Of a stretch of 64,000 nt of DNA, positions 595 to 64,000 are shown piece after piece (within the stretch, counting starts at the first letter, position 1; each line of letters opens with the position of its first letter). The position numbers and the translations under genes were made by a program. This stretch comes from Lycium barbarum. Lineage: Eukaryota > Streptophyta > Magnoliopsida > Solanales > Solanaceae. The stretch is from positions 47,096,938 to 47,160,937 of the forward strand of contig NC_083337.1 of the NCBI RefSeq assembly GCF_019175385.1, given 5' to 3'. Below the pieces are notes generated by a model. It saw only the letters and a list, made by a program, of their open reading frames with translations, searched no databases and was not told the DNA's origin.

Positions 595-985
595 ATGCCT
601 GAAGGGGCCATCATTATTATTATGCCGGAAGCGGCATGCCCGAAGGGGCCATCATTATTATTATGTCGGAAGCGGCATTCCCGAAGGGGCCATCATTATT
701 ATTATACCGGAAGCGGCATGCCCGAAGGGGCCGTCATCATTATTATTATGCCGGAAGCAGCATGCCCGAAGGGGCCATCATTATTATTATGCCGGAAGCG
801 GCATGCCCGAAGGAGCCATCATTATTATTATGTCGGAAGCGGCATGCCCGAAGGGGCCACCATTATTATTATTATGTCGGAACCGGCATGCCCGAAGGGG
901 CCATCATTATTACTAAGCCGGAAGTGGCAGCCCGAAGGGGCCATCATTATTATTATGCCGGAAGCGGCCGTCCGAAGGGACTATT
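595..985. repeat. Minisatellite, 41-bp period, about 9.5 units
   Basis: Units beginning ATGCCCGAAGGGGCCATC recur at about 595, 636, 677, 718, 762, 803, 844 and 888, then degenerate to about 985. The period is 41 bp, or 44 bp where an extra ATT is present. Because 41 is not a multiple of three and the unit lacks stops, all three plus frames stay open, giving spurious ORFs. It lies about 190 bp upstream of the LTR twin hairpin. Confidence 0.95.
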
Positions 986-1652: not shown

Positions 1653-3803
1653 GAGGTTCGTAGTTTTCTAGGCTTAGCAGGTTACTACAGGAGATTCGTT
1701 GAAGGTTTTTCTTCTGTTTCTGCACCACTCACAAAGTTGACCCAGAAATCGGCAAAGTTTCAATGGACGGATGCTTGTGAACGTAGCTTCCACGAGTTGA
1801 AAAATAGGTTGACTTCCGCCCCAGTCTTGACACTTCCAGAGGGATTGGAAGGATATGTTGTTTATTGCGATGCTGCTGGGGTTGGGTTAGTCTGTGTATT
1901 GATGCAACATGGTAAAGTGATTGCGTATGCCTCAAGGCAATTGAGGAAACATGAGCGGAATTATCCGACCCATGATCTAGAATTGCCCGCAGTGGTTCAT
2001 GCGTTAAAGATATGGAGACATTATTTATATGGTGTCCATATGGATATTTACACAGATCATAAGAGTCTCCAGTACATCTTCAAGCAGAGAGAGTTGAATT
2101 TGCGGCAACGACGATGGTTGGAACTGCTAAAGGATTATGATGTCGATATTTTGTATCACCCTGGAAAGGCAAATGTTGTAGCTGATGCTCTTAGCCGCAG
2201 ATCCATGGGAAGTTTATGTGATGTACGACCAAAGAGAAGAGAAATGGCTCGCGAGCTCCAGCAATTAGCTAGCCTGGGAGTTCGACTGGTGGACTCAGGC
2301 AGCGGGGGAATTACTATTCAGAATTCAGCGATCTCGTCGCTAGTAGCAGAAGTGAAAGAGCGACAATATGAGGACCCCATGCTAAGGCATTATAGAGATA
2401 CACTCTCTCAGAAAGAAGAGTCATCATTTGAGCTTTCGGGAGACGGCGTTCTTCGATGATGAGGCAGATTGTGTGTTCCCGATGTAGCAGGTCTACGCCA
2501 CCAGATATTGAAAGAAGCTCATTGCTCCCGTTATTCTGTCCACCCCGGAGCGACGAAAATGTATCATGACCTTAAGTCTATATATTGGTGGAATGGAATG
2601 AAGAAAGATATAGCAGAATTCGTAGCTCAATGTCCAAATTGCCAGCAAGTGAAAATCGAGCATCAAAAGCCGGGTGGATTGTTGCAAGCTATAGAAATCC
2701 TAACTTGGAAATAGGAAGTGATTAACATGGACTTCATTTCAGGCTTACCCCGTTCTCGACGTAAGTATGATACCATATGTGTGATTGTACATAGGCTCAC
2801 AAAGGCAGCTCATTTCGTACTGGTCAGAACGACCTATGTGGCAGAAGATTATGCAAAGCTTTATATTAAAGAGATAGTAAGACTCCATGGTGTTCCAGTA
2901 TCTATTATCTCAGACAGAGGGACTTAGTTCACAGCCAACTTTTGGAAGTCTTTCCAAGAGGGTCTAGGGACCCAAGTGAACCTTAGTACGGCATTTCACT
3001 CGCAGACAGATGGACAAGCCGAGCGTACCATTCAGACTCTTGAAGATATGTTGCGGGCATGTATGCTAGATTTTGGAGGAAATTGGGATGATCATTTGCC
3101 CCTCATTGAATTTGCTTACAATAATAGTTACCATTCCAGCATTCAAATGACACCGTATGAAGCTTTATATGGGCGAAAGTGTAGATCCCAAATTGGGTGG
3201 TTTGAAACAGGAGAGACTAAATTGATAGGGCCAGACTTGGTCCAGCAAGCTATAGAGAAAGTTAAGCTCATACAAGATCGGTTATTAGCAGCCCAAAGTC
3301 GTCAAATGTCCTATGCGGATAATCGCCGAAGAGACTTAGAGTTCCAAGTGAAAGATTGGGTATTCTTGAAAGTGTCACCGATGAAAGGTGTAATGAGATT
3401 TGGCAGAAAGGGGAACCTTAGTCCCCGGTACATTGGACCTTATGAGATTGTGCGCAAAGTGGGCAAAGTGGCCTACGAATTAGATCTACCTCCGGATTTG
3501 GAGTCAGTTCACCCAGTTTTTCATGTCTCAATGCTTCGAAAATGTATTGGAGATCCTACTAAGATCATGCCAATAAGTGATGTACATGTGACAGAAAAGT
3601 TATCTTATGAAGAGGTACTCATTGCCATAATAGATAGGCAAGTACGGAGGCTTAGAAACAAAGAAGTGGCCTTAGTTAAGGTTCTATGGAGAAGCAGCAA
3701 ACAAGAGGAAATGACATGGGAAGCGGAAGAAAGTATGCGATCTAGATACCCTCATTTATTTCAACCCTTGGGAGAGATTCAAGATGAAACATCATCGGTA
3801 TGA
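1653..3803 (+). pseudogene. Ty3/gypsy chromovirus pol remnant (RT end, RNase H, integrase, chromodomain-like tail)
   Basis: One continuous frame runs from the RT end ([16 protein letters not shown]) through RNase H to integrase. RNase H shows YCDAAG, DLELPAV and YTDHKSL, carrying its acidic residues. Integrase shows an HHCC zinc region (EAHCSRYSVHPG, CPNCQQVK), the DDE core (MDFISGLP, SDRGT, DGQAERT), then GPYEIVRKVGKVAYELDLPP and a chromodomain-like end (VKVLWRSSKQEEMTWE). It would encode replication and targeted integration of an A element, but stops at about 2457, 2460, 2712 and 2925 break it. There is no frameshift, so decay looks point-mutational. The 5' half of RT, protease and gag are absent, cut off at 1652 by the B LTR. 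Clade assignment (Tekay/Del-like) is from recalled motifs. Confidence 0.9.
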
Positions 3804-4009: not shown

Positions 4010-4227
4010 TGTTACACCTCGGAAAAATCCTCCGTTGTTGTCCAAGTGAATGGACCCACGAGGAGTACGAGTATCCGATGTTTTCATGAGTAAGAAATAA
4101 CATTTGACGACCCTAAGTAAGATTCCGAAGGCAATTGTAATAAGAGATAGGTTATGCTCCATAATGAATAATTATAGGTTTTGGAAATGTGAAAAGTTAC
4201 AGGTTTGCATTCTGGCCAGTTGGTCGT

Positions 4228-4500
4228 AAAGTGAAATACGGACCGTAAAGTGGTATATGGTCCGTAAACTTCCATGTCGTATTTTGGCTTCCAAAACTTC
4301 AACTTTCTGCCAAATGATTAAATGGTTAAATACGACCTGAAATACGGACCGTAAAGTGGTTTACGGCCCGTAAACCGTGATCGTAAATCACCATGTTTCA
4401 GCCTCAGTTTCTGGTTCTGTTATGATTAAACACGACCATGAAAGACGGTCCGTAAACTGGAATACAGACCGTAAACCAAGTTTACGACCACTGTGTTGTT
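4228..4500. repeat. Cluster of palindromic ACGGNCCGT words in an LTR
   Basis: Several copies of tacggaccgtaaa-type words. The best is the perfect 19-mer GGTTTACGGCCCGTAAACC at 4358-4376 (9-bp arms, 1-nt centre). It lies just upstream of the putative core promoter. Other A LTRs have the same cluster with different but symmetric arms. Confidence 0.85.
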
Positions 4501-14597: not shown

Positions 14598-14661
14598 TGT
14601 CACGACCCAACCGGAGGGCCGCGACGGGCGCCCGGTGCTAGCCCACCCGGGCACCTCTTAT
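14598..14661 (-). mobile_element. Family A LTR, minus strand, first piece (split by insertion)
   Basis: Begins TGTCACGACCCAACCGG, the reverse of the A LTR 3' end, and resembles the start of the copy at 57705. After 64 bp it is interrupted by the 9.3 kb gag-only element. The last 5 bp (14657-14661, CTTAT) are the target duplication, and the LTR resumes after 23951. Confidence 0.88.
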
Positions 14662-17600
14662 TGTCACGACCCAAACCCCGTGGGCCGCGACTAGTACCCT
14701 AACTGGGTACCCATACGTACCTACCTGATCGAATTCGAACCATACAGATTTTTTTTTTTTTTTTTTTTTTTAAAACAGAAGTACGGAAGTAGGCCGATAC
14801 AAATACGGCGTGCGCGTAACATACATATATATACATATACCTGAACACACAGACATTTACAGATAAGCCGATAAGGCTAACATACAGACGGAACCCGTAA
14901 CCCACACATCTATCTACAGGCCTCTATAGACATACAGAATCATATGACGGGACAGGGCCCCGCCGTACCCGGAATATACATACATACGGAATACACAGAC
15001 GACAGAAAATATATACCAAAGATATGCTCCGGGTCAAAGGAGCTCTTCAGATAGCAGAGTCGGAAACCTACGCTGGCGGCGTCTCACCTGGTGCGTCTGT
15101 ACCTGCGGGCATGTAGCGCAGCCCCCGAAGAACGGGGGTCAGTACGGAAAATGTACCGAGTATGTAAAGCAGCAACGTAACAGATATAAACATAGTCCGA
15201 ACTAGAGTCACAGTAATATAACGGGCAAAATCATAAGTCAAACTGACAGACAGAGTTATGATCCAGACGGACATACAGAATCGTGTTACACACAAATGGA
15301 CAGAATTATAGTTCGGACAGACAGACGGAATCATAATACAGACCGACGAGCAGAATCTGAATCCATACGGACATACCGAAGCAGAAGCCATACGGACATG
15401 CAGAATTAGTCGTAACACAGACGGACAGACAGACAGTAGCATGACGGACAGAATTATGCATGCAGAGTAGCACAGAGTCATACAAAATCATACAAAGGCG
15501 TGTGCTTTATAAATACAGATGGCACACGCATATATTCATACAGATCCCGGCCCTGTCTGGGGGCGCGGTAACAGAACCCGGCCCTCTTAGTACGGGACGC
15601 GGTGGACAGACAGAATCAAATCGGATCATATGCCATCCTGGCCGCCATCCCCATACACAGATCATACAGACATACAGATCCCGGCCCGTACGCCGAGGGA
15701 CGCGGTGAACAATGCAGAGAAAATATGCACGATAACAGAACCTGGCCCGGGTCGCAGTGAAAGAATGCATTGAGACAGACACGAATTGATAAATGAGAAA
15801 CCACCTACCTACAGACTCAACATACAGACTCGATCAATCGGAAGGGTGCCAAACGGCGAGCCAAAATCAGAATATCCAGATAGTATGCATAGCACGCGCT
15901 CATATCCTAATTAGGAAGGCACGACAGATTATCAGAATGGGATGCTCGGATGTTCAGAAATAATATTGTATAAATTACACAAAAATATCCATAATATTCA
16001 CAAAATAATAGTTCAGAAGTTTTTGGAGAAGATCGGACCAAAACAGAAGTATTTTAAAAATCGTACCGGAAGTATCGGGCCTTGTGGGCCCACCTCGGAC
16101 CAACCCGAGGCTACATACGTAAATTACTGATGATTGACCTTATGAGGTCACCCATACTCATTCGGAAGTGTTCCGACTCCGTTTGGGGAAGTTTTGTACA
16201 AAATCTCACTTTAAGGGCAATTTGCAATAAAATAGTTTCAATTGAATTGAAGGAATTGGAGCGGTTTTCCGTCTCGAATTCCGGGGAACGGAGTCGGACC
16301 TAGGGCTCGCGGCCGAGCCTACCACATCCAGAACATGCCTAGGAGCGTATAGAAGTGCTTCACATACCTCGATGGCGCCTTATGCTCGCTCGGCGTCAAT
16401 CCAAATTTCGTCCAAAATCTGGAAATGGTCAAGTTTACCATTGGGTTAGTTTCATTCTTTCAATACTCTATCTTTACACATAATTGCCTACCGAAATTTC
16501 GGCAGCATTTCCTCTGTATATACGACATCCCCGAGACTTAGCTCGGCTCAATTCCTCAACACAACAGCCCAGAGAAAACATCCAAACAACAACAAACATC
16601 AATAAACACTAATTCATACACTATGGCATTATTAGCCATCTTTCGACACAACGAGTTATTTTTCGTTTTAAACTTGCATTTCCAACCAAACTTATTATTT
16701 TCATATCCATTATCCATCAAAATCATTACGACACACATCGGAGGCATCCATACCATATTCACATAACATTCATAAGTTACTCAAACATTCAACTTCCTAT
16801 CAAATCACTACCTTCCCAATCTTTCCTAACTTCCAACATACAAGTTCATAAACACATTTTCATATTCCAAGTTCGTTATCGTCAATCACAATTTCAAGAC
16901 ATTAGGCTAACGCAACATACTTTCCGACAACGACTTAACAAACAATTCTTCGTTTTGGCTTAACCATTATCCTTCAATCTACTTCACAAAGCCATAACAC
17001 AATTAACATACAACCAAAATCAAATTCACATCCCATATTACACATAGTACCATACGGCCAACATACTATATTTTCCAACTCTCACTAATTCATCCCACTT
17101 TCCTTTCTAATACAATTTCCACCATACTACAACTAACTTACACAAGAATTCAAACCATTACAATCATGCAATACATATATATGCATTCGGCCACCACCCA
17201 TATTTTTTTTCAACATACAAAATTTCCATGTTTTTCCTTCATTCACACATACTACAACATACCTATATCATTTTTAACACAACAAAAGCATGGAATCCTT
17301 ACCTTTCTTCAAGTTCTTCACTTGGGGTTGAAGTTGTTTTCTTGCCAAAATATTTACATCAACTTGTAGATAATCTTGTGCTTAGTAATAATCTCTCAAG
17401 AGAGGAACTTTTTAAACCCAAGAATTGGCTCCAAAAATTTTTCTTTCTTTTCCTTTTCTTTCTCCTCTCACCCGAAACCCTCTCCTTTTGTTCCTTCTTT
17501 CTTGCTTTGTATTTTTTTTTTCTTGAAAGTTCTAAGGATAATGATGGATATATAATGCCACATGGAAAATTTATCCATGGGCTTGGATCATGGTATGGCC

Positions 17601-17840
17601 GGTTGGGCCATCCCATTTGGGCCTAATTTTTTTCCTATCATTTTTGAGCCCAAAATTGTTGTCTAAAGATGGTAATTTATGGAGAAAATTTCCAAAATTC
17701 CCTTGGCCACCTTTCGTAATTCCACACCATTAAATTCATAACCTACACATGCATACAAAGTAAGGTCCAATTGTGGCCTTATTCATCACAAGTCAACCCA
17801 CCTTGAATTTTTCGAATAAACAAAAATGTCGGATGTAACA
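14662..17840 (-). repeat. 3' LTR of the gag-only element
   Basis: 3179 bp, TGTCACGACCC...GGATGTAACA in plus orientation. Contains T23 (about 14749-14771), a twin hairpin (15122-15158), degenerate GACGGACAGACAGAAT-type repeats (15240-15450), GGCCC-rich repeats (15540-15740) and a CCGAAATTTCGG palindrome (about 16492). The 137-residue ORF at 15068-15481 is duplicated with the other LTR and looks like repeat-driven chance. Confidence 0.93.
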
Positions 17841-20574: not shown

Positions 20575-20777
20575 CGCTGAAACATAGCAGATCGTTAGGA
20601 GAGGGTCATCCTACTAATACAGTTCTATCGCACGATCTAAGAATCCAAAGAAGGGTAACATCCTAAATGCCCTGTAGCTTCCTGTTTATAGATGTGGTGC
20701 ACAACACATCGATAACCAGAACTCTACTAGACACGGCCTGTAGACATACCGAGGACTAACCGCTCTGATACCACTTT
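20575..20777 (-). other. Leader and tRNA-Met primer binding site of the gag-only element
   Basis: The reverse of GCTCTGATACCA (20762-20773) is TGGTATCAGAGC, complementary to the 3' end of initiator tRNA-Met, 4 nt inside the 5' LTR. A two-part hairpin at 20682-20719 follows in the leader. The leader is recognisably the same as at 37514-37690 and 31700-31873. Confidence 0.9.
20682..20719 (-). other. Leader hairpin with GTGCAC loop
   Basis: Outer stem CTGTTTAT/ATAACCAG (7 of 8 pairs), inner stem GATGTG/CACATC (20691-20696, 20705-20710), 8-nt loop containing the self-complementary hexamer GTGCAC (20697-20702). Such a loop can kiss a second copy, as in retroviral dimerisation sites; that role here is inference. 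Confidence 0.6.
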
Positions 20778-23700: not shown

Positions 23701-23951
23701 ATGGTATGGCCGGTTGGGCCATCCCATTTGGGCCTAATTTTTTTCCTATCATTTTTTAGCCCAAAATTGTTGTCTAAAGATGGTAATTTATGGAGCAAAT
23801 TTCCAAAATTCCCTTGGCCACCTTTCGTAATTCCACACCATTAAATTCATAACCTACACATGCATACAAAGTAAGGTCCAATTGTGGCCTTATTCATCAC
23901 AAGTCAACCCACCTTGAATTTTTCGAATAAACAAAAATGTCGGATGTAACA
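20778..23951 (-). repeat. 5' LTR of the gag-only element
   Basis: 3174 bp, nearly identical to the LTR at 14662-17840. The one length difference seen is T18 versus T23. It ends GGATGTAACA next to CTTAT. Confidence 0.93.
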
Positions 23952-26428
23952 CTTATCATACCTTTACATTTACATCTAGGTGAGCCACACACTAAATCAT
24001 ACATTTCCATTCATCAATCATACTAGTCCCATTGGACAACAATACCTCTATATCATCATTGGCATCTATGCCCATATCAATGTACATAAGCCAATGATGC
24101 TAACAAAATGAAATCCAAAATATAGACTGACAAGGCTAAACACATCTAACCATATACACATGTCTACGAGCCTCTAAGGAGAGTATGTCATATCATATAG
24201 GCGGGACAGGACCCCGCTATGCCCATAAATATGTGCACAAAATAATAAGTACCAAAAGCTATAGCTCCGAATGAAATGGAGCTCCGCTATATAGTCCCCG
24301 AGAAATGTAGCTATGGATCAAGTCTGTCTCCCTGGGCACCTGCGGGCATGACGCAGCGTCCACAAACAAAAGGACGTCAGTACGAAGAATGTACTGAGTA
24401 TGTAAAGCATGATCAATATCAACATAGAAGCATAATACACAACATAAAAAAGGCATAAGATGGGAGATAATCGTATTATCGTCATAAGCACTTACTTGCT
24501 TCTAATGGGGACCTTCCATTTCTAGCACGTATTTGTGTACATACATCCATATCCGTATCCGTACTCATTTACAGTGCGTCCATAATCGTATTCATATACA
24601 TAGTCTTATTCATATTCGTATCATATTCATATACATAGCATGCCCGACCACGAAGGTTCGGTGTTTCACGTACCCGACCATGGCTAGGCTCGGTTATCAT
24701 ACATACTTGGCCAACCAAGGCTCAAGGTTACACATACCTGGCCCTACCAAGGTTTCAGGGTTATTCTTACCAACTGCAGAGGTGTGCGCGCGCGTTACAT
24801 AAATATATAAATATTCTACCCGGCCTTATAAGCTCGGGGTTCCATAATAGTCATACATAGATACATATACGTAATAACTCATAAGCATCTTTACTATTAT
24901 CATCACTATCATTATCGTCATCGCTATTATCGTCATCGCTATTATCGTCGTTATCGTATCGTTATCACTATCATCGTCGTTCATTACATCTATCCTTATA
25001 GGATTACTCATCGTATAAGGAACTTAGTACAATCGTAACATATCGAGAATCATAAGCTTAATAGCTTTTGAAGATAGAGTCATTTGGAGGACATCATAAA
25101 CACATAAAAGATTTAGAAGATTGGCCAAAGAACCATGCCTTATGAAAGAAGTGTTAGCCTTACATACCTTTCCGTTCAACTATTCTACCACTTGCATGTT
25201 CTCCTTCAACGCTCACGTTTCTATTTTCATTGAAGTTATACTATCATTAGAAATCGATAGCTAGCATACAGGACTAAAGCTAGAGAAAATTGGACAGCAT
25301 CTCCTTTATTTATACAACATTCCTCCATATCGTATATCAACTCCCAAACGTCAATAATACATTCACAATATCATAACAATAGCCTTTATTCATCCACATT
25401 ATCTATATTTCTCAATTCACTTCCAATCACCCATATCCATGGTCATGACACACGTTTACATTCATTCATATACAATGTCTATCTCATGTTCTTAAAATCA
25501 TTTATAACATATCAATATCACAACACATCAAGAATCATGACTCAATTCAAGCTATTACTCAAAATAGCACTATTCCACATTCATGACCCATTTTTCTATA
25601 TCCTTCTACAATCCAAGTATTTCAACTTTCAAATACCTTAAAAAACATGGAAATACCATATATATTACCTTAGATGTTGTAGGAACCTGCTTTGGATGGA
25701 AATACTTCACTTGAGCCAAAACCCTAGTTCATCTCCAATGAGATTTCTTGACTTGGATGATCTTTTAATGGGTTTCTTACACTTGATTCGCTTAGTTTAT
25801 GTTGTTGATCAGTAATACCTCTTGAATTCTTGTGGAATAAATGTAGAGATATGTTTTAGAGAGAAGGGGTGTGCTATGGAAATGAAATGAAATAAGACTT
25901 GGTCCCTCATTAAATACACCAATCTGTTCCCGACAAGTTCTACGGACCAACATACGGTCCGTATAAATTATACTGACCGTATGTCTGGCCGTAGAATTGG
26001 TCCAGAGAATGGTGACAATCTAGGCTTATTGTACGGTCCAACATACGGTCCGTATGTTTTATACGGCCAGTATGTTTGGCCGTATAATCCCCAGTGATCC
26101 GAAATTCGTTCTCGTCGACTCGTTTGATCTCCAATCCTTATGGAACCTTCTTAGTACTTGTTTACCACCTCATTAACAATCTAATGGATGTTATAACTCT
26201 CCTCCAAATCATTATTAAATCCTCGTTACTTGTTACTCGTAATTCCTTTTCCATACCTATCGTATGCCTTGCCTTCTCTTGGCAACTTTCTCCCCCTTTC
26301 TCGAATATCTTTGAAATCTTAATTAGGGTCATCAAATGCCATTCCGTACTTATCGAAATACCGTATACTTCGTGCTCTACATTAGTCTATTCACTGTGCA
26401 TCAACGGAAAATTTTTCGAGGTGTAACA
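23952..26428 (-). mobile_element. Family A LTR, minus strand, main piece
   Basis: Continuation of the LTR cut at 14661 (CTTAT duplicated at 23952). It ends TTTTTCGAGGTGTAACA at 26428, followed by the reversed polypurine tract TTCTCCCCACTTAAG. It includes the twin hairpin (24358-24396), the variable repeat block (about 24660-24780) and a palindrome cluster (25940-26090) with the perfect 19-mer AACATACGGTCCGTATGTT at 26040-26058. Joined length is about 2.54 kb. Confidence 0.9.
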
Positions 26429-27579: not shown

Positions 27580-29626
27580 TGTTACACCTTGGAAAATCCC
27601 CCGTATATGTACAGTGAATAAGCTAACCAAGAGCGTAGCATATGAGATGTTTTGACGAGCAATAAAGAGTATTAGATGACCCTCGACGAGATTCTAAAGG
27701 CATACAATGTAAGGAAAGAAAGTTGCTAAGGAAAATGAATCATACGCGGTGTATCGGATAAGAATAACAAGCAACGATTTGGTGATGGCATAATGAGGTC
27801 TTAGGGATAAGCAATAACGTCCTTTATATGGGTATTGAAGTGTTAAACAAGTGTTAAGAAGGTTCCATAAGGATCGGAGATCAAACGAGTCGACGAAAAC
27901 GGAAGTCGCTTCAGTTGGCATTATACAGCCAAACATACGGTCTGTATAAATTATACTGGCCGTATGTTGGACCGTATAAGTGGAAAAAATGAAGATAACA
28001 TGCTGGACCAAATGTACATCCATACATACGGTCCGTATAAATGGTACGGACCGTATGTTGGTCCGTATAACATGGTCGGGCAGCTTTTAAATTTAAGTGT
28101 AAGGGATCTTTTTCATTCATTTTTCATTTCATCTCCCCTCTCCTCACTTCAAGAAAACTCTAGAACATTCCTTATCCCTCATTCACTAAGAGTCAAAGGG
28201 AATCCATGATCAACCACACCAAGTTCATGAAAACAAGAGTGTGAAACCCAAGTAAAGTTCATCCGCCTCAAAGAAAACCAAAAGAGGTGAGATAGGATTT
28301 TGTTCCTAGAGGAGAAACTCCACTCAAGACTTGTTCAACCATCATCCAAGGTAAGTTTCATGACCATTATATGGTTTTTAAGTTATTGGAAGGTTAAGAT
28401 ACCCGAATTGTAAAAGAACATAGCAAATGGGTCATTCAAGAGTGAATAGTGTCATGAGTGAGTGGTAGTTGAATTGAATCATGAACGTTAGTGTGTTGTG
28501 AGTATGAATATGTTATAAATGAAATGTATACCATGAGATAAGTGTGATACATAGGAAAATACGATAGCGAACCCAAAACCATAAATGTGGGGAAACATGA
28601 AGAGAAATGGTGGATCATGGCCATTGTATATGACTGATAAGTGTGATTTGCTATATTGTGATTGTTATTGTGGGTGATTGGGAGTTGATATGGAATACGG
28701 GAAAAGTAGTATAAACAAAGGAAGTGCTGCCCAATTTTCTCTAGAAATAGTAGTGCGTTCTTATAGTTGGTTAACTAACGATCGTACGAATCCTCTTTTT
28801 GAAGGTAGAGGCGTGACATTGAAGGAGAATAAGCAAACACTAAATTGCTTAAACGACAAAGGTATGTGAGGCTTAACTCTTCTTTGAAAAGGCATGAATC
28901 CATCAAGCTTTCCACAAATCCTTCTATAAGATGAAGCTTAAGAGTCCTTCTATACATTAAATCCCCTATGAGCATGATAGTGATGACAATGAGCTAGAGT
29001 CTAGAGACTCAAGAAATTGTGGCATCATGTTCCTACAATGCTAATGATGTTGTTATTGTTAACACTCTCCTTATGTTTTATTCCCTTCAAGGCGAGGCAT
29101 GATACTCGTAAATGTCCATAATACAATCGGGGGTTCACGACCTTACGTCACCCCGACATAGTATGGTTGTCTTAAAGCCTAATGAATGCTCTTAATGCTA
29201 TTGTATGTTATGAAAATAAAATGATAAGTAATGCTAACTTGTAACACTATGGGATGCATGGAACACTAAGAAATGATAACAGGATGCTATGGATTGAGAT
29301 GTATAATAATGACGTGTTGTGATTGATGTTGTGCTGATAAGATTCCACCGTGCCTAAATGGCCGGGCATGTCACCGCTAATGCGGGCTGCGTATGATTCC
29401 ACCGCGCCTATATGGCCAGGCATGTCACCGCTAATGCGGGCTTCGATGTTTACACCGAGCCGAGAGGGCCGGGCATGATCACCACTAGTGGGAGGCATAT
29501 GAGGGTTACCCGAACGCGGGTAACGATACAGATTACGATGTGATAATGTATATGAGGACGTACGTGATGATGTATGGGATGTGATAACATGTGTACTATG
29601 ATTGTGTTAAATGTGAATTGGACAGG
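27580..29626 (+). mobile_element. Family A 5' LTR, plus strand, 3' end missing
   Basis: Begins TGTTACACCTTGG inside the pol frame of the previous element; the 5 bp before it are ATAAT. It holds a palindrome cluster (27925-28075), AAGGTAAG (about 28348), GGTATGTGAGGC (about 28860) and 54-bp repeats (29337-29500). No GTCGTGACA end is seen: at about 29626 it jumps straight into pol coding sequence, so a deletion removed the LTR end, gag and most of pol. Confidence 0.82.
29337..29500. repeat. LTR repeat block, about 54-bp period, three units
   Basis: Units of GATTCCACCG...GGCCGGGCATGTCACCGCTAATGCGGGC. Each contains small inverted repeats (GCCNNNNNGGC and CCGCTAATGCGG). Confidence 0.8.
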
Positions 29627-30099: not shown

Positions 30100-30156
30100 C
30101 GAGTGTTTAACATTCGAGGACGAATGTTCCAAAGGGGGGGGGGGGGGGGGGGAGAA
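30100..30156 (+). other. Polypurine tract with a G19 run
   Basis: The inverted repeat ACATTCGAGGACGAATGT (about 30108-30126) is followed by AAA, 19 consecutive G (30134-30152) and AGAA before the LTR. Related tracts in the window have about 4-8 G. Confidence 0.9.
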
Positions 30157-34340: not shown

Positions 34341-37300
34341 TGTTACACCTCAAAATTTTTTTCGTTCATGCACAGTGAATAGACTGACGAAGGGCGCGAC
34401 GTATACAATGTTTTGATAAATAAGAAATAACATTTGATGATTCTAATTGAGATTTCAAAGACATGCTAAGTAGGAGACGGAAGTTGTTAACGAAGGCAAG
34501 GCATACGTTATGTATCGGAAAGGATTCACGAGTAACGATGTATGATGATTTAATTATGCTTTGGAGTAGAGTTATAACATCCCTTAGACTGTTAATGAAG
34601 TAATAAACAAGTGTTAAGAAGGTTCCATAAGGATTGGAGATCAAACGAGTCGACGAGAACGAAATCGGAATAGCTGGGCATTATACGGCTCAACATACTG
34701 GCCGTATGTTAGGCCGTATATTTGGCCCAGATGGTCAACCTTCTCTGGATCAAATCTACGGCCAGACATACAGTCAGTACAATTTATACGGACCGTATGT
34801 TGGTCCGTAGAAATGGGTCGGGACAGATTTGAGTATTATCAATAAGGGTCCAAGTCTTATTTCATTTCATTTCCCTTCACTCCCCTTCTCTCTAAAACAT
34901 CTCTCTACACTTCTCCCACAAGATTTCAAGGGATATTAGTTATCAACTACATCAAATTAAGTGAATCAAGTGTAAGAAACCCATTAAAGTTCTTCCAAGG
35001 CAAGGAATCCAAGTGAAGGTGGAACTAGGGTTTTACTCAAATGAGGTGTTTCCACCCAAGGTTCATTCCTACACCATCTAAGGTAATATTTATGGTATTT
35101 CCATGTTGTTTAAGGTATTTGAAAGTTGAAACACTTGGATTGTAGAAGAATATAGAAAAATGGGTCATGAATGTGGGAATAGTGTCATTTTGAGTAATAG
35201 CTTGAATTGAGTCATGATTCTGGATGTGTTGTGATATGGTTAGGTTATAAATGATATTAAGGACATGGGATAAGCATTATATGTGAGAAAACTTACTAGT
35301 ATACTATGACCATGATTATGGATGAATTGATGTAGAATTGTGAAATGAGGGTAATGTAGATGAATGACAATTGTTGGTTATGATATTGTGAACGTTATTA
35401 TAAATGTTTGGGAGTTGATATACAATATGGGGAAGGTTGTATAAACAAAGGAAATGCTTTCTCTTGCAAATAAGCACGTTCCTATAATCGAGTAGCTAAT
35501 ATGAATGCGAATTTTCTTGAAGGTAGAAACATGAGCATTAAAGGAGGACAATCAACCGATGGAAATTGTTAAATGAAAGAGGTATGTAAGGCTAATCCCT
35601 TATTTCTAAGGCTTGACTCTTATGGTATGAATCCTCCTATCTTTCCATGATTTCCCTACATATCGGGAATTATGAATCTACGAGTATAAAGAGCTTCATA
35701 CGAGATAAAGAAAAGAGATACGTTACGATCATGACAATACCGATGATGAATCTAAGTCTAGAAATCCTAAAGCTCATGATACGATATTCCTACGAAGCTA
35801 ATGATCCTTATATGTTTCCTATAATATTATTTCCCTAACTCTCCATGACTTTCTTACATTCTGAGAACTATGAGTTAAAGTTGATAAAGAGCTTCTTATG
35901 AGGTAAAGATGAGAGAAATGTCATGAATACGAAAATAATGATGGTAAGTTTAAGCCTAGAGATTCTAAAGCAAGATATGATGTCTATGAAGTTAATGATC
36001 CTATTTACGATCCCTTGATGTTGTTCATGGTGTACACTCACCTTAAAATGTTAGTTCGTTCAAGGTGAGATATGATGAATATGGTCACTTCATAATGTAA
36101 TCGGGGGTCTCGACCTTATGTCACCGCGATAATGTTATAGATTGTCTATAAGCTCTAATGCATGTCCTATGACCAATGTTTCGAAAAATTACGAGTCTAT
36201 GTTCATAGAGGATTTCATATGAGATAAAGGTAAGAGATATGCCATAGATACGATGATGGTAACGATGAGCCTAAGTTAGAGATTATAAAGTCTATCATGC
36301 GATATCTTTACGAAGTTCATACTACGAATATGATACGATTTTCATAGATTGTCTTTAAATTCAAATGCATGCTCTATGAAAAGTTATGATATGTTTATGA
36401 GATATATGTGATGATAATGATGACGATGCTGATAGTGATGATGATAATGATGACGATGATAATAGTGATGACGCTAAAGATATTTATGGGATTTTATGTA
36501 TATGTACCTATGTATGGCTATTATGAAACCTCGAGCTTATATGGCTGGGTAGAATATAAAAATAATAATAATAATTATATATATTCGCGTACACCACTGC
36601 AGTTGGGTACGGATACCACTGAGCCTTGGTAGGTCCGGGTACAGATATCACTGAGCCTTGGTAGGGCCATGCACGGGACAACACTGAGCCTTGATAGGGC
36701 CAGGCACGTATAACACCAGGCATTATTATAGCTGGGTACGTAAGACACCGAACCTATATAGTCGGGTACGATACTACTATGTATTAGAATGTATGAAAAG
36801 CCTGAAGGATATGTATGTGATACTGTCGAGCCACTATGTGGCCGAATACGGATAATGTTTAATGTGTATGAGCAGATACGGTACTATGATATACATATAT
36901 GATACGATGATATATGTGCTATGATGATGCATGTACTATGGTTATATCTGACATAGGCATGAAAGGTATCCATCCTTGAAAGTTAAGCAGATTATATCTT
37001 CATATTATGTCTCATGACTTCTCTATTATGTTAATTTCATTCATGCCTTACATACTCAGTACAATATTCATACTGACGTCCATTTTCTTTGGACGCTGTG
37101 TTCATGCCCACAGGTAGACAGGGAGTCGATCCAGATTTACAGAAGCCGATAAGCAGTCTTTTGAGAGCACTCCATTATTCCGGAGGTGCCATTGATTTAC
37201 TGTTTGTGTACATATATGTTTTGGGCACGACAGGATCCTGTCCCGTCCATATGTCTAGTACTCTAGTAGAGGCTCGTAGATACGTATGTGGGGGTAGCAT

Positions 37301-40998: not shown

Positions 40999-41895
40999 TG
41001 TTACACCTCGAAAAATTTTCCGTTCATGTACAGTGAATAGACTGACGAAGGGTGTGACGTATACGACGTTTTGATAAATAAGAAATAACATTTGATGATT
41101 CTAATTGAGATTTCAAAGACATGTGAAGTAGGAGACGGTAGTTGTTAAGGAAGGCAAGGCATACGTTATGTATCGGAAAGGATTTACGAGTAATGATGTA
41201 TGATGATTTAATGATGCTTTGGAGAGAGTTATAACGTCCCTTAGATTGTTAATGAAGTGATAAACAAGTGTTAAGAAGGTTCCATGAGGATTGGAGATCA
41301 AACGAGTCGACGAGAACGAAATCGGAATAGCTGGGCATTATAAGGCCCAACATACTAGCCATATAAATTATACTGGTCGTATGTTAGGCCGTATATTTAG
41401 CCCAGATGGGCAACCTTCTCTGGACCAAATCTACGGCCAGACATACGGTCAGTATAATTTATACGGACCGTATGTTGGTCCGTAGAAATGGGACGGGACA
41501 GATTTGAGTATTATTATAAGGGTCCAAGTCTTATTTCATTTAATTTCCCTTCACTCCCCTTCTCTCTAAAACAACTTTCTACACTTCTCCCACAAGATTT
41601 CAAGGGATATTAGTGATCAACTACATCAAATTAAGTGAATCAAGTGTAAGAAACCCATTAAAGTTCATCCAAGGCAAGGAATCCAAGTGAAGGTAGAACT
41701 AGGGTTTTACTCAAATGAGGTGTTTCCACCCAAGGTTCATTGCTACACCATCTAAGGTAATATTTATGGTATTTCCATGTTTTTTAAGGTATTTTAACGT
41801 TGAAACACTTAGATTGTAGAAGAATATAGAAAAATGGGTCATGAATGTGGGAATAGTGCCATTTTGAGTAATAGCTTGAATTGAGTCGTGATTCT
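40999..41895 (+). mobile_element. Family A 3' LTR of the LARD-like element, piece 1
   Basis: Starts TGTTACACCTCG after the purine tract and matches 34341 onward. Cut at ATTCT (41891-41895). Carries the palindrome cluster (41335-41490). Pieces 2 and 3 follow after later insertions. Confidence 0.9.
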
Positions 41896-43859
41896 TGTCA
41901 CGCCCCGAACCATGTCCTGGGCGTAACACGACACTCGGTGCCTTGCTGCATATAACCGAGCAAACCACATGACTTACTGAGTCTACATAGGACATGAACT
42001 GATACAGAATATAAGATAAACATGCATGAATTGTGAAAACATGGAGTTCAATAATCATAAGTCTGAAAATATTATTTTTATTATATCATGAATGCGGAAT
42101 TATGGTAATGTAGCCATTAAGGCCAACTCAACTGAACATGACAACTGACATAAATAGAATTAAAGACACAACCCCGAATGAGATGGGGCTCACCAAAAGC
42201 TGATACGAGCAATGTCCTAACGAGCAAATCTGCTGTCCTATCAATCAATACCTGCATCGTGAAATGCAGGCCCCCGGGTAATAGAAAGGGGACATCAGCA
42301 ATTTGAATGTACTGGTATGTAAAGCAACTGAATGAAATAACATGGGACATGAAATAATAATGATAGGAACTGAAACTTGGTCATGAACATGAATATATAT
42401 ATATAACCGATCTATGGTCTGGTGCTGCGTCCTGCCAGCAGAACACTCAGTCCTTGCTAGGAAACATGAGATTTAATAAAATATGAAAGGATCCAGTCAT
42501 TATGAGAGATCTTCCGGGACCTGGGTGGAGCGATCCTCATCCTACGGTGGCTATGTAGTTTCAGGCTATCTGAAGCCTTCCTCGGTAATTAAAGCTACCT
42601 CTAAAATCATGAACATGTAAAATAAGTGGCACTTGCAGCCCATGGTTTTCATGAATATTATCTGCTTATACATGGATATCATAAATTATAGCTTGCTTGC
42701 ACGAACTTGTAATGTATAGAATTTTCTTGAAAGTAGCATAATATATCATAAACTAGCATGCATGAACCCATGGAATGAGATATATGGGTTTTTCATAGAT
42801 TACAGATAGATTCTTAATAATCATAAAGAAATATTAAGAACTAAATGATGGAATTATAACAATTCATACATAATATAATCATGGACATGGACCTATGGTT
42901 ATCATGAACATGGTATAGAAACCCTAGTTTTCGTAAAGAATCATAATTTATGGATTATGAGGCGTGGGGAAGAACAATGATGTTCCCACACGTAGATAGT
43001 AACCCTACATACCTTAGTCGCTCCAAAATTTGAATTAAAGACTTGAGCTTTGAAGAAGATTTCCAAAGTCTTGAATTATTGAACCTTGGGATGGGTTTTC
43101 TTGAAAACCCTAGTTTAGGAACAATGATTTCTTGCTTAGATTATTAAAGTATATATTAGAATTGAGTTGGAAGGGTTTACTCAAGTTAGAAAGGGATTAG
43201 GGACTTGAATTCAACCTAGAATCATGATAAAACTTACCTTGGAAGTTTCTTGAGGTTTGGGACTTGTTCTCTATGAATTTAGGGTAATTTTTCGTGAATG
43301 GGGTGTTGGGGGAAATAAACCCCAAATCTTAAATATAACTTAAAACGTGTAAACCCGACTTTTGACCTGAAACCCGACCTTTTATGCATTGGGTCCACGA
43401 CGCAAATGCATTGCGCGACCCCCTGCAGGTCCATATTCACAGAGGGTGTTTTTGTGCGATTTTCCCGCGACGCGGGTCCATCGCACGCGCCTCCACAAGC
43501 GACATGTGTCGGTTCTACACAGTGTTCGGTAAAATAGGCATGAATTCTTGTACATAGCTCTGTTATAGACCCATAATATACCGTTGGAAAGATATTTCAA
43601 AGGTATACAACCTTCATCAAGGAGGTTTTCCCAAATTCCAAAATAATAAAGGGGTTATGGTCGTTGGAAGTAAGACATTCTACAAACTCACTTGAAAACA
43701 TCCCTCGTAGAAAGGCTTCTGACTTTGATTTGTCCAAAGACTATTCTTATGACTTGATTAGTTTTAAAAACACTTCCTATAACCCTCATATTGGTTCCAT
43801 TATATTATTTATTATAATCTTATGAGTCAAACCTTCGCCCGAAGCTACGAGGTGTTACA
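41896..43859 (-). mobile_element. Family D solo LTR with target duplication ATTCT
   Basis: 1964 bp, TGTCACGCCCC...GAGGTGTTACA, flanked by ATTCT at 41891-41895 and 43860-43864. The uninterrupted site is visible in the sister LTR (about 35216, GATTCTGGATG). On the minus strand it has AAGGTAAG (about 43236), AAGGTATGTAGGG (about 43006) and a CCCC/GGGG hairpin (about 42270-42295). GCGACGC-type inverted words lie at 43395-43505. Confidence 0.93.
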
Positions 43860-43998
43860 ATTCTGGATGTGTTGTGATATGGTTAGGTTATAAATGATAT
43901 TAAGGACATGGGATAAGCATTATATGTGAGAAAACATACTAGTAAACTATGACTATGATTATGGATGAATTGAAGTAGAATTGTGAAATGAGGGTAAT
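43860..43998 (+). mobile_element. Family A 3' LTR of the LARD-like element, piece 2
   Basis: Resumes with ATTCTGGATGTGTTG and matches the sister LTR at about 35216-35360. Ends with GTAAT (43994-43998), the target duplication of the next insertion. Confidence 0.92.
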
Positions 43999-55936: not shown

Positions 55937-57104
55937 AATTTGGCGACACTTCCTTTGTCTCGACAAATTCTTCCATGAAATAAGATAACCCTCAAACATC
56001 AATAAGAACACTCATGATAACATAATTAATAGATTCCTTAAGTTAAACATTGTTTACTTCTTAAATCCACCTTCAAGATCATCCATAACCATACCTATAT
56101 TACAACATCATATCATTCTCAAAGAATACTCCTTTAATATCATTTGTATCATTCACCACAAGTTTGTACTCATAACATGTAAGAACTATTATTCAAGTTA
56201 AGTCATCAATCAAGAGTATCACTATTTCCATATTTGTACTCCATATTCTCCTCCCTTCCATAATCCGAGTCTTTTAATCTCTCAATACTCTTAATAACAT
56301 GAATTGAACATAAATCTTACCTTTGATGATGTAGGAATGGATTTTGAATGGAACTACTTTACTTGGAGAAAACCCTACTTCAACAACAAAGAGATTCTTG
56401 GTTTTCACAAACCCTAGAGAGTATCCTTGCACTTTATTCTACTAATTCTTGGTGTTTACTCCTTGATTTCCCTTGGATATATGATGATATGATGAGAGAA
56501 TTTTTGTAGAACCTTCAAGACTTAGAGAGAGAATCAAATCTAAAAAATTTGAGCTCAACTCGTCTATTTATAACTGAAACTGGAAAGTTCCAGAGAAGCG
56601 GTTCGACGAGTGGGTTGACTGTCACGTCGACACGTTGACGATCCATCGACTTGATCCGTAGACCTACTTCTGTAGATTAGAAGTTGCAGAGTGCTATTGA
56701 CGGCGGAGATCAATGGCCCGTCAACGTGTCGACGCTCCATCGACATATCTCGTCGATCTGCTTCTGCAAATCAGAATTTTCAGAACATAGTGATGGTGCA
56801 TATTGACGGTCCGTCGATAATGTCTGATGTCTGCAGACTTCCCTGAGTCTGCTCATCCTGCGTCGGTTCAATCTGTTCAACTTCTAAGCCCGCAAATCAC
56901 TAGGAATACCTGCTGGTACACTGTGTTCAATATTTTCTGCCTTAACTTTCTCCAACAAGCTTTCCTCTTTTTTTCCCCAAATGTCTTTGGAATCTTAATT
57001 AGAATCATTAAGTATCCCTTCTTACTAGTAGGGACATCATATACACCTTATCCTACGTTAGCCTATTCACCGCACAACGACATGAAATTTTTCGAGGTGT
57101 AACA
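55937..57104 (-). mobile_element. Family A LTR fragment, minus strand
   Basis: From about 55937 it resembles 25270-26428 of the other minus-strand A LTR and ends TTTTTCGAGGTGTAACA at 57104 before the reversed polypurine tract. Its palindrome cluster (56580-56820) uses TTGACGG/CCGTCGA arms, with an 11-bp palindrome GACGGTCCGTC at 56805-56815. Confidence 0.8.
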
Positions 57105-57704: not shown

Positions 57705-60315
57705 TGTCACGACCCGTCTAGAGGGCCGCGACGAGCGTCCGGTGCTAGCCCACCCGGGCACCCCTTAACTTACACTTAAGCTTACATCTAGGTGAGCCAC
57801 ATAATTAAACACATAATTCTACTCATTCATCATGCTAGTCTCATTAGACGACAATTCCTTTATATCATCATAATTGACACCTATGCCACGTCAACGTACA
57901 TGAGCCAACAAGGCTATCAAAATGACATACAAAATATAGGCCGACAAGGCCAGACATATCTAACCATATACATGTGACTACGAGCCTCTAAGAAGAGTAT
58001 AACATGTCACATAAGCGGGACAGGACCCCGCTATGCCCATAATTATATACACAAAATAATGAGTACCCAAAAGCTATGGCTCCGAATGAAATGGATCTCT
58101 GCTATGTAATCTCTGAGAAAGCAGCTATGGATCGAGCCTGTCTCCCTGTGTATCTACGGGCATGACGCAACGTCCACAAACAAAAAGACCTCAGTACGAA
58201 GAATGTACTGAGTATGTAAAGCATGATCAATATCAACATAGAAGCATAAATAACAACATAAGAAATAGCATAGAATGGGAGATGGAAATATCATCGTCAT
58301 ATGCACTTACTTGTCTTTCTTAGGAACTTTCCATTTCTAATACGTGTTTGTGTACATACATCATTATCCGCATTCATAATAGTACCCGTACCATATTTGT
58401 GCTTGTACTCATATACATGCCCCTTATTCACATTCATATACATAGTCATATCATATTCGTATTCATATCATACACACAATCATATCATATATATAGCATT
58501 TACATAGCAAACCCGACCACGTAGGATCGGTGTTTCATACATACTTGGCCAACCAAGGCTCAAGGTTACTCATACCTGGCCCTACCAAGGCTTCAGGGTT
58601 ACATCTACCTGTCCCTACCAAGGCGTCAGGGTCATATCTTCCTAGCCCTACCAAGGCGTCAGGGTTATCCGTACCATCTGCAGAGGTGTGCGCGCATTAC
58701 GTAATCATATACATACTTATTTACATATCTTACCCGGCCTTATAAGCTCGGGGTTCCATAATAGTCATACATAGATACATATACATAATAGCTCATAAGC
58801 ATCTTTACTATTTACATCATCATCATAATCGTCATCAACATCATTATTACTATTATCGTCATTCATCACATTTACCTTAATAGGCTTACTCGTCATACGA
58901 TGAGTTTAGTGCTATCATAGCGTATCAAGAAGCGTGAGCTTACTAGCTCGGAAGATCAAATCATTTGAAGGATATCATAGCCTCATAGAAGATTTAGATA
59001 TTTGGCCAAAGAACCATGCCTTATGAAAGAAGGGTTAGCCTTACATACCTTTCCGCTCAACTATTCTACACTTGCACTTTCTCCTCCAATGCTAGCATTT
59101 CTACCTTCATTAAAGTCATACTATCATTAGAATCGATAGCTAGTACATATATGACTAAAGCTAGAGAAAATTGGACAGCATCTCCTCTATTTATACGACA
59201 TTCCTCCACAATGTATATCAACTCCCAAACGTCAATAATACATTCACAATACCATAGCAATAGTCATTATTCATCCACAATATCCACATTTCTCAATTTT
59301 CTTTCAATTACTCCTATCCATGGCTATAACACATGACTATGTCCATTCACGTACATTGCTCATCTCATGTTCTCAACATCATTTATAACATTATTATATA
59401 CACAACGTATTAGGAATCATAACTCATTCCAAACATTTACTCAAAAGTGACACTATTGAACATTCATGACCCATTTCTTATATTCTTTTGTACTTCGAGT
59501 GTTTCAACTTCCCAATACTTTAAACAACATGGAAACATCATAAAAATTACCTTAGATGGTGTAGGATTGAACCTTGGGTGAAAATACCTCCCTTGAGCAA
59601 AACCCTAGTTTTCTCTTCACTTGAATTTCTTGCCTTTGATGAACTTTAATGGGTTTTCTTACTTTGATTCACTTGATTTGATGATAATGACCTTTGATTT
59701 CCCTTGGTTTCTTGTGTATGAAATATATGTAATGCTCTAGAGGCTTTAGAGAGAAGTGGAGAAGTGTTGGAAATGAAATAATGAAGTTGGGAACACATTT
59801 AAAGTCTTGGAACATTTCAGTCCATCGGGAGTTCCACGGTCCGTGGAACATGATGCCGTCCGTGAAACTGGTCGTGGTTCACGATCAGCCAGCCATCTTC
59901 TCTGCTGGCCGTTCCACGAACCCATCCACGGTCCGTGGATCAGGGTGCTGTCCGTGGAACCTGGTCGTGGAACTCACAGTTCCACCAAAGTTGATCCCGT
60001 CGTCTCGTTTGATCTCTAATCCTTATGGAACCTTCTTAGCACTTGTTCATCACTTCATTAACAATCTAAGGGGCGTTATAACTCTACCTCAATACATCAT
60101 TTAGTTACCATCAACTTGCTACTCATAAATCCCTTCCGATACTTATCGAATACATGACCCTCTCTTGGCAACTTCCTCGCCTAACATCGAATGTCTTTAA
60201 AACCCTATTTAGAATCATCAAATGCTATTTCTTACTCATGGAAATATCATATATTCTTGCCCCTCACTAGTTCATTTACTTAGTCAACAACGGAGGATTT
60301 TTTCGAGGTGTAGCA
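57705..60315 (-). mobile_element. Family A 3' LTR, minus strand, complete (2611 bp)
   Basis: TGTCACGACCCG...GAGGTGTAGCA (TAGCA instead of the usual TAACA). Holds a twin-hairpin region (about 58165-58215, second stem damaged), a 33-bp repeat block (58530-58680), and a palindrome cluster (59815-59980) with perfect GTTCCACGGTCCGTGGAAC at 59831-59849 and ATCCACGGTCCGTGGAT at 59924-59940. A reversed GGTAAT donor-like site is at about 59549. Confidence 0.9.
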
Positions 60316-62420: not shown

Positions 62421-64000
62421 TGTTACACCTCGGAAAAAATTTCCATTGGTACGTAAGTGAACGAACTAGTGATAAGTATGGGTGTATGATGTCCATGAGC
62501 AAGAAACGACGTTTGATGACCTTAGGCGAGATTTCAAAGGAATCCGACGTAAGACGAGAAAGTTGGCTAAGATAAGGCAAGGTGAGGTAAGCAATGCATG
62601 TGCATGGATATGGGTGATTAAAATGAGAAGTCTAAGAAATATGGAAAGTTGCAGAATTGCAATCTGCCCAGTGGTCGTAAAGTGCAAATACGGATCGTAA
62701 ACTGGTATACAGTCCGTAAACTGCCAGGTCGTAAACTGGCATGCAAGCCTTCAACTTTCTGCCAGTTGAGGAAATGGTAAAATATGATCTGGTTTACGGA
62801 CCCTAAAGTGATTTACGGCCCGTAAACCATGGTCGTAAATCACCATGCCAGCAGCCAAAGTTTCTGGTTTTTGAAAAGGTTAAAGACGACCGCAAGGGAC
62901 GAACCGTAAAATGGAATATGTGGTCGTAAACTCAGTTTACGACCACAGTTCACCGCAACACTGATTTTGCAATTCATTAAATAAAGGGACCAACACTTGT
63001 TTTATTTCATTTCCACATTACACACCTTCTCTCTAAAACCTCTCTCTACATTTATTATCGAAGCTTTCAAGGATCATAAGTCATCAACAACATAAAACAA
63101 AGTGAATCAAGAGTAAGAACATCATCAAAGGTCATCCAAGTCAAGAAATCCAAATGGAGAAAAACTAGGGTTTTGCTCAAGGTGGAGTATTATCAACTAA
63201 AGCTTGTTCCTACAAATTCTAAGGTAAGATTCATGATATTTATATGATGTTTAAGATATTGGAGAGTTGAAATGCATGGATTGTAGAAAATATGGTCAAC
63301 TAGGTCATGAATGATGAATAGTGACATTTTGAGGAATAGTTTGAATTGAATCACGAATGTTGTTGTGTTGTGATATGAATGTGTTATAAATGGTATTAAG
63401 ATCATGAACTAGACACTTTAGATGGATGGACGAAGTTGGGTGTTATACCCTTGAATATGGATGAATTAGAAGCAAGTTGAGAAATCTAGATAATGTGGAT
63501 AATGTGAATGACTAATGGCCATTGTTATGATATTAATGAAGGTAGAAACGCTAACATTGGAAGGGGACGTACAAGTGTATAATAGTCCGACAAAAAGGTA
63601 TGTAAGGCTAACCCTTCTTTCACAAGGTATGGTTCTTTGGCCAAATTCCTAAATCCTCTATACGAGTATGTTGTCTCCAAATGATTGATCTCCGAGCTCA
63701 TAAGCTCACAATCCTCGATATGTACTACGTTTGTACTACGCTCCTCATATAACGAGTAAGCCTATGATATAGATGTAACGATAATGATGATGATAGTCAT
63801 GATAATGATAATAATAATGATGCTAAAGGTGCCTCCGGGCTATTAGATGTATGTGTGCCTATAAAGGGCTATAATGAAACCCCGAGCCTATGGTGCCAGG
63901 TCGAGTATATGTTTATATATATGTATGTGTATGATTACGTAACGCGCGCACACATCTGCAGATGGTACGGATAACCCTGAAGCCTTGGTAGGGCCAGGTA
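62421..64000 (+). mobile_element. Family A LTR, plus strand, 5' part (continues past window)
   Basis: Begins TGTTACACCTCGG within gag of the minus-strand element; GTAAC (62416-62420) precedes it. It parallels 4010-5690: palindrome cluster with TTTACGGCCCGTAAA (about 62812), pyrimidine patch (about 63020), AAGGTAAG (about 63221), GGTATGTAAGGC (about 63597) and the start of the repeat block at the window edge. Confidence 0.9.

What the first reader, a model, noticed from the sequence alone, without database searches (positions are those of the whole stretch)
4228..4500. Palindrome clusters in A LTRs whose arms change symmetrically between subfamilies
At the same place in each A LTR, just upstream of the putative core promoter, there is a cluster of words with a constant centre CGG-N-CCG and arms that differ by copy but stay self-complementary: GGTTTACGGCCCGTAAACC (4358), AACATACGGTCCGTATGTT (26040), GTTCCACGGTCCGTGGAAC (59831), TTGACGGTCCGTCGA (56803, one mismatch). 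Copies within one LTR mostly share one arm type. A symmetric change of both arms is hard to get by drift. It suggests a dimeric protein site that changes specificity, a DNA or RNA hairpin, or a copying mechanism that spreads one palindrome. The D solo LTR may have its own version (GCGACGC words, 43395-43505). I know of no description of this.
Basis: seen in the sequence. Interest (0 to 1): 0.8.

Follow-up and report, generated by a model that had tools for sequence, protein, structure and literature searches.

The report
Palindrome arrays in plant retrotransposon promoters
Upstream of their promoters, many of this plant's retrotransposons carry regularly spaced arrays of short palindromes whose centre hardly changes and whose outer letters are shared within one copy's array but differ between groups, probably protein-binding sites of a kind already reported in a different class of plant retrotransposon.

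Summary
The palindromes are real: ACGGNCCGT occurs 14 times in the window (0.28 expected) and 196,295 times in the genome (5,909 for the reversed word). They sit in U3, 228-471 bp into the LTR. The usual unit is two palindromes 18-19 bp apart, often flanked by outer half-sites, repeated every ~70-120 bp. The claim that both arms change symmetrically holds only in part. Across 196 sampled core sites, 3-bp arms match in 77 (24.3 shuffled); within the A family in only 28 of 78 (19.2 shuffled). Inside an array, palindromic partners match no better than random half-sites of that array (47 against 52.7). The unit is therefore a half-site, CCGT plus an arm shared across the array, not the palindrome. 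Cores are near invariant, arms array-specific, outer spacers free, which fits binding sites better than copying. Arm type follows upstream U3 better than R-U5, so part of the 'change' is probably U3 modules on other LTR bodies. Closest precedent: the CGG-CCG 'RM boxes' of Sireviruses (Bousios 2010); here they occur in Ty3-type elements. Best reading: cis-regulatory arrays for a dimeric host factor family. Fold-back hairpins, strong in one subtype, are the main rival.

The parts
4222..4492 (+). A1 LTR palindrome array, three clusters (exact cores 4238, 4344, 4363, 4445), arm type CCGT-AAA; the LTR starts at 4010
4326..4389 (+). best-formed A1 cluster: outer half-site, palindrome, palindrome 19 bp on, inverted outer half-site; holds GGTTTACGGCCCGTAAACC
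   Evidence: RNA fold z -3.1
25938..26088 (-). A2 LTR array, two clusters, arms ATG/ATA, palindrome spacing 18 bp; each cluster folds back as one long hairpin
   Evidence: (z -8.2 and -5.9)
27920..28072 (+). A5 LTR array, two clusters, arms ATG/ATA
34680..34812 (+). A6 LTR array, arms ATA/ATG, one exact core (34788)
41345..41487 (+). A7 LTR array, arms ATG/ATA, one exact core (41463)
56600..56820 (-). A4 array, arms CAA/CGA, one exact core (56806); its LTR aligns with other A LTRs only over about its first 50 bp
59825..59990 (-). A3 LTR array, arms GGA (7 of 12 half-sites), exact cores 59836 and 59928; does not fold as one hairpin per cluster
62668..62947 (+). A8 LTR array, arms AAA (11 of 14 half-sites), one exact core (62815)
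2928..3803 (+). stop-to-stop ORF upstream of the A1 LTR: SH3_Tf2-1 (E 2e-26) and a chromodomain match below its cut-off (21.7 of 25.1 bits): Ty3-type, probably chromovirus, pol end
43454..43486 (.). palindrome of the D solo LTR with a different core (CGCGACGCG) and outer TGCGA/TCGCA words

Best explanation
The arrays are promoter-proximal cis-regulatory modules: regularly spaced half-sites CCGT-xyz, mostly paired head to head as CGG-N-CCG palindromes, two palindromes 18-19 bp apart, often with outer half-sites about 12-13 bp beyond, the unit repeated up to four times upstream of the transcription start. A dimeric DNA-binding protein family of the host would read the shared CGG/CCG core; members with different preferences would read the outer three or four bases, so each array is tuned as a whole to one or two arm types. 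U3 modules also reassort with R-U5 bodies, as intermolecular strand transfer at R during reverse transcription would produce. Shown here: core, geometry, array-wide arms, free outer spacers, presence in Ty3-type elements; indicated: module reassortment. Inferred: protein binding, enhancer function, identity of the factor.
For: Fixed geometry: spacing 19 bp in 80, 18 in 24 and 20 in 17 pairs of cores with up to one mismatch; 196 exact cores against 0-18 for nine other 9-nt palindromic words in the same DNA. Three tiers across repeats of one LTR: core 0.95, arm 0.64 (position 7: 0.71 against 0.35 between LTRs), outer spacer 0.30, flank 0.30. Arms are array-wide and independent of palindromic partner or orientation. 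Mixed AAA/AAC sites, one base from either pure type, number 213 genome-wide against 18,362 and 6,995 pure sites, about 2% of independence. The same core occurs in DNA with no extended similarity to A: only 23 of 68 sampled loci with a core align to an A LTR over 250 bp or more. In one Ty3-type element (RNase H and integrase in L085) two further arrays lie inside the element, downstream of the integrase domain and ahead of an unidentified open frame (L031: cores 378-676 and 1396-1718, open frame from 1791), which could be an internal promoter. A3 against A2: flanks 75% and 70% identical, array 47%, yet both keep exact cores 91-92 bp apart.
Against: No binding, expression or methylation data and no named factor. 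Within the A family mixed palindromes outnumber symmetric ones, 50 to 28. Mirror symmetry of clusters reaches into the outer spacers (122 of 300 against 89.1 permuted, only in exact register, for 19-bp clusters; but 39 of 85 against 40.2 for 18-bp clusters) and weakly into the flanks (216 of 660 against 174.5), which independent dimer sites do not need. The two bases midway between the palindromes are also partly conserved within LTRs (0.61 against 0.40). An exact outer ACG or CGT at the expected offset is found in only 34 of 60 19-bp clusters on each side, and 15 of 19 18-bp clusters. The identity of the open frames around the internal arrays is not supported by Pfam.
Confidence: 0.58

Rival explanations
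1. Fold-back model: each ~60-nt cluster is selected, or persists, as a hairpin in the retrotransposon RNA or as a DNA cruciform, feeding small RNAs or affecting silencing, as proposed for maize Sireviruses.
For: Of six window clusters folded, the two of A2 give -35.5 and -26.9 kcal/mol (z -8.2, -5.9) and two of A1 z -3.1 and -3.9. With half-sites held fixed and spacers shuffled, real clusters still fold better: mean z -0.84 (sem 0.13, n 60) and -1.00 (sem 0.27, n 15). Mirror complementarity of spacers is in exact register in 19-bp clusters. Published: small RNAs concentrate on palindrome clusters of maize Sireviruses (passages of PMC10760457).
Against: Does not explain the near-invariant CGG-CCG core across unrelated LTRs. 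The two A3 clusters do not form one hairpin each (z -2.8 and -1.8). In 37 oriented A-family clusters mirrored mismatches show no G-U preference (G.T 77, A.C 101). Same-orientation half-sites match about as well as mirror partners. The spacer signal may partly be half-sites longer than assumed.
Confidence: 0.21
2. Mutational model: replication slippage, gene conversion between repeats and quasipalindrome correction (templated repair of imperfect palindromes) homogenise arms without selection.
For: Arrays are tandemly repeated; arms are shared across an array; between arm types the arrays of the window LTRs are only 46-70% identical and mostly heavily gapped, while arrays of one arm type are 74-94% identical.
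Against: Copying should homogenise spacers too, but outer spacers are at 0.30 identity against 0.64 for arms and 0.95 for cores. Quasipalindrome correction should make partners match best; they do not.
Confidence: 0.1
3. Mostly module shuffling: a few arm types arose long ago in separate elements and the apparent switching between A subfamilies is recombination of ready-made U3 modules.
For: On 30 A-like LTRs arm type needs 8 changes on the R/U5 tree (AAA 6, at least 5 forced by well-supported branches) but 5 on the tree of U3 upstream of the array (AAA 3, 1 forced). U3-based modular evolution is published for the Tnt1 superfamily of Solanaceae (PMC1838419, passages).
Against: On the upstream tree L018 (GGA/GAA) groups with AT-type L070 and L078 with good support but a long branch, and A3 and the A8 group sit among AT types without good support, so arms seem to have changed inside U3 lineages too; that tree has 10 open branches and long-branch warnings. 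It explains spread, not origin or function, so it is complementary to the best explanation.
Confidence: 0.11

Closest known systems
Sirevirus RM boxes (Bousios et al. 2010, PMC2829016; sections 9 and 19 and passages read)
   Same: Palindromes with a CGG-CCG core and variable outer symmetric bases, many copies per LTR, starting 200-400 bp after the PPT/LTR junction, upstream of the TATA region, CpG-rich; further copies upstream of the ENV gene.
   Different: There a Sirevirus (Ty1/copia) feature said to be absent from the classic retrotransposons compared; here in Ty3-type elements, with a one-base N centre, a cluster geometry of two palindromes 18-19 bp apart plus outer half-sites, and several arm types in one genome.
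[quoted passage not shown] 2016; not held; known from passages of PMC10760457 and recall)
   Same: Palindromes in the cis-region; strong predicted hairpins.
   Different: Excess small-RNA mapping reported there, untested here; PMC10760457 says maize Ty3 elements generally lack an obvious peak of such structures.
5' plastic CpG island of Del LTRs (Cruz et al. 2014, PMC4029996; passages)
   Same: CpG-enriched, variable block in the 5' part of long LTRs of a Ty3 lineage.
   Different: Not found there in the eudicot group nor in one monocot group; palindromes not mentioned (the word stem is absent from the text).
U3 modular evolution of the Tnt1 superfamily (PMC1838419; passages)
   Same: Subfamilies differ mainly in U3 while the rest stays similar.
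   Different: A different superfamily (Ty1/copia, recalled); palindromes not mentioned (word stem absent).

Membership tests
Sirevirus RM boxes | palindromic repeated motif with CGG-CCG core | tested here: met
Sirevirus RM boxes | copies start 200-400 bp into the LTR and extend over 300-500 bp | tested here: inconclusive
   exact cores start at 228-471 bp, but the window arrays, bounded by eye, span only 133-280 bp
Sirevirus RM boxes | lies upstream of a TATA box and forms a CpG island | tested here: inconclusive
   CpG observed/expected is higher in the array than in the rest of the LTR in 8 of 8 LTRs; no formal island call or TATA model was run
Sirevirus RM boxes | extra copies upstream of an ENV gene | tested here: inconclusive
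   one element has arrays downstream of integrase and ahead of an open frame that matches no Pfam family over the 70 residues held
Sirevirus RM boxes | host element is a Ty1/copia Sirevirus | tested here: not met
   two elements tested: A1 has Tf2-1 SH3 and a weak chromodomain; the AAC element has RNase H before integrase in one ORF, Ty3 order
Del/Tekay chromovirus LTR | chromodomain integrase end | tested here: inconclusive
   PF00385 E 1.9e-4, 21.7 bits, below the 25.1 cut-off
hairpin-derived small-RNA source | small RNAs mapping to the array | not testable with these tools
   no small-RNA data held

The most novel reading that the evidence does not exclude
A half-site code shared by unrelated Ty3-type lineages of one plant: an invariant CCG monomer site plus a three-base tag that each element lineage keeps largely uniform over its array and can exchange as a U3 module, read by a family of paralogous or element-encoded DNA-binding proteins in an arms race like that proposed for VANC proteins and their motifs (recalled).
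Probability: 0.25. Interest if true: 0.75.

Novelty: new variant of a known kind. Interest (0 to 1): 0.5.

Why it matters
It extends a motif class reported as Sirevirus-specific to Ty3-type elements, gives it a precise geometry and a testable half-site rule, and makes the open question of which plant factor reads CGG-CCG boxes directly testable: there are about 196,000 genomic sites and natural arm variants. It also separates two causes of U3 diversity, change of sites and exchange of modules.

Tried and rejected
Palindrome-by-palindrome compensatory change: not supported by the within-array shuffles and pairing comparisons. Copying of whole units: not favoured. RNA-specific constraint: no G-U excess. 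Family of the CGA-type elements: one fetched stretch (L086) gave no Pfam match in six of its eight listed ORFs, so unidentified. The open frames beside the internal arrays of the AAC element (L031) and the one after integrase in L085 gave no Pfam match at a cut-off. A literature search for the core as letters (80 papers hold it, 25 listed) showed no retrotransposon paper by title among those listed; I read only the listing. PMC2829016 came up in the searches; the listings showed me no paper whose title or shown abstract describes such arrays in Ty3 elements. Genome counts for the AAA/ATA mixed site were asked many times and never answered; the CGA count and the arm listings for sites beginning C or G were tried once each without answer and not repeated; GGA, ATG and ATA/ATG counts were planned but not run. 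The D palindrome was not counted genome-wide.

Full report
Observation. The core ACGGNCCGT occurs 14 times in the window against 0.28 expected, and the window lies in a 1.67-Gb genome that holds 196,295 of them against 5,909 for the reversed word. The full words TTTACGGNCCGTAAA, TATACGGNCCGTATA and GTTACGGNCCGTAAC occur 18,362, 31,579 and 6,995 times, with 0, 3 and 0 for their reversed controls. In eight LTRs of the window the exact cores start 228-471 bp after the LTR start; in seven of the eight a TTTCATTTC-like block follows at 519-579.

Sampling. I fetched 20 random 10-kb stretches (L005-L024; 19 exact cores) and 60 short windows around core hits on contig 1. Sites were defined by the nine-base core alone; L001-L004, selected on arms, were left out of the arm counts. 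Twenty of the windows follow the first core hits; forty follow hits, which also required A twelve bases outside the core and no C at the mirror place. This gave 196 core sites in 78 groups of nearby sites, single sites included. The targeted windows lie in the first 9.1 Mb of one contig, so the sample is not a random draw of the genome, and some isolated cores are probably chance.

Geometry. Cores with up to one mismatch are spaced 19 bp apart in 80 cases, 18 in 24 and 20 in 17; other common spacings are 72-121. The cluster is two palindromes, with outer half-sites 12-13 bp beyond: an exact ACG on the left is found there in 34 of 60 19-bp and 15 of 19 18-bp clusters, an exact CGT on the right in 34 of 60 and 15 of 19. 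By the two-palindrome criterion A1 has three clusters, A2 and A5 two each, A8 two and A7 one; A3 and A6 miss the criterion because one partner is degenerate, and their layout was read by eye.

Arms. Across all sites identical 3-bp arms occur in 77 of 196 against 24.3 (sd 4.3) after shuffling, and symmetry exceeds expectation out to about positions 8-10. But in the 27 arrays with three or more sites (123 sites) the observed 47 identical pairs are below the mean of 52.7 obtained by pairing half-sites of the same array at random. In 79 clusters left after removing near-copies (85% identity; 104 before), arms match in 55 of 158 palindromic pairs, 61 of 158 same-orientation pairs, and 37 and 32 of 79 pairs across the cluster dyad, against about 12% between LTRs. 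So the arm is a property of the whole array. Inside the A family alone, 28 of 78 sites are symmetric against 19.2 shuffled, p 0.0105, and mixed sites are common. Between two families the separation is sharp: AAA/AAC mixed sites number 213 where independence predicts about 10,258.

Constraint or copying. In 45 pairs of 19-bp clusters within one LTR (from the arrays kept after near-copy removal, 19 of 30; pairs 80% identical or more and all 18-bp clusters left out) identity is 0.95 in cores, 0.64 in arms, 0.61 in the middle, 0.30 in outer spacers and 0.30 in flanks; between LTRs the values are 0.94, 0.43, 0.40, 0.29 and 0.26. Copying would have carried spacers along. A2 and A3 have 75% and 70% identical flanks but a 47% identical array, while both keep exact cores 91-92 bp apart and differ in arms, ATG/ATA against GGA. 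Shuffled arrays (A1 and A2, ten shuffles) also align at 47%. Within one arm type the arrays are 74-94% identical, about as similar as their flanks; between arm types they are 46-70% identical, mostly with many gaps. The array limits were set automatically and are short for A6 and A7.

Fold-back. Many clusters as wholes are imperfect inverted repeats. I folded six window clusters: the two of A2 form long hairpins (z -8.2 and -5.9), two of A1 weaker ones (-3.1 and -3.9), the two of A3 not as one unit (-2.8 and -1.8). Spacer complementarity across the dyad is in exact register for 19-bp clusters (122 of 300 against 89.1, none of 2000 permutations as high; within arm type, both cluster kinds together, 144 against 122.5, p 0.0065) but absent for 18-bp clusters (39 of 85 against 40.2); flanks show a weaker excess (216 of 660 against 174.5; within arm type p 0.16). 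With half-sites held fixed real spacers still improve folding (mean z -0.84 and -1.00; 13 of 60 and 5 of 15 below -1.64). Mirrored mismatches in 37 oriented A clusters (52 before near-copy removal) show no G-U excess (77 against 101 A-C). I therefore keep the hairpin as a live rival.

Spread. On 30 A-like LTRs the arm type, read from exact cores only, needs 8 changes on the tree of the downstream R/U5 stretch and 5 on the tree of U3 upstream of the array. The upstream tree has long-branch warnings and many open forks, so the contrast is indicative. It fits exchange of U3 against R-U5, as strand transfer at R between co-packaged RNAs would give (established knowledge of LTR replication, not tested here).

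Which elements. Twenty-three of 68 sampled loci with a core align to an A LTR over 250 bp or more. The A element shows the Tf2-1 SH3 domain and a sub-threshold chromodomain. The AAC element at C1:1.5936-1.6067 Mb has RNase H followed by integrase in one ORF, arrays in two places 12.7 kb apart with the same spacing of eight cores, and two further arrays inside, downstream of the integrase piece; a second copy near 3.549-3.562 Mb has a matching layout of AAC hits. A 56-residue open frame before the internal arrays looks to me like the end of pol, and an open frame starts behind them, but neither matches a Pfam family at its cut-off. I suspect an Athila-like element (recall only). CGA-type elements were not identified.

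Known precedents. The RM boxes of Sireviruses match in core, palindromy, LTR position and, loosely, the copies upstream of ENV (PMC2829016, sections 9 and 19 and passages); that paper calls the motif Sirevirus-specific. Hence: works like an RM box, not a member by host element. The idea of a factor with changing specificity was already voiced there in another form: minor variation may confer different binding properties.

Verdict. The binding protein and function are inferred, not shown.

Noticed in passing
window 62919-62947: Perfect 29-nt palindrome TGTGGTCGTAAACTCAGTTTACGACCACA inside the A8 array, formed by two outer half-sites facing each other; the longest odd-centred palindrome in the window.
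   Followed up: partly
L031 (C1:1600400-1602400), cores 378-676 and 1396-1718: Internal palindrome arrays downstream of integrase in a 12.7-kb Ty3-type element; a second copy (about 3.549-3.562 Mb) has a matching layout.
   Followed up: partly
window 43998-53420: Three near-identical blocks 4,228 bp apart (98.97-99.8%), which looks like a tandem LTR-internal-LTR-internal-LTR arrangement.
   Followed up: no
window 30134-30152: Run of 19 G in the polypurine tract next to the truncated A LTR at 30157.
   Followed up: no
window 595-979: Tandem repeat with a period of about 41 bp.
   Followed up: no
window 14653-17840 and 20770-23951: A 3.2-kb direct repeat pair at 99.4% identity, perhaps the LTRs of a young element.
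   Followed up: no
window 43454-43486: D solo LTR palindrome with core CGCGACGCG and outer TGCGA/TCGCA words, resembling the A layout with another core.
   Followed up: partly
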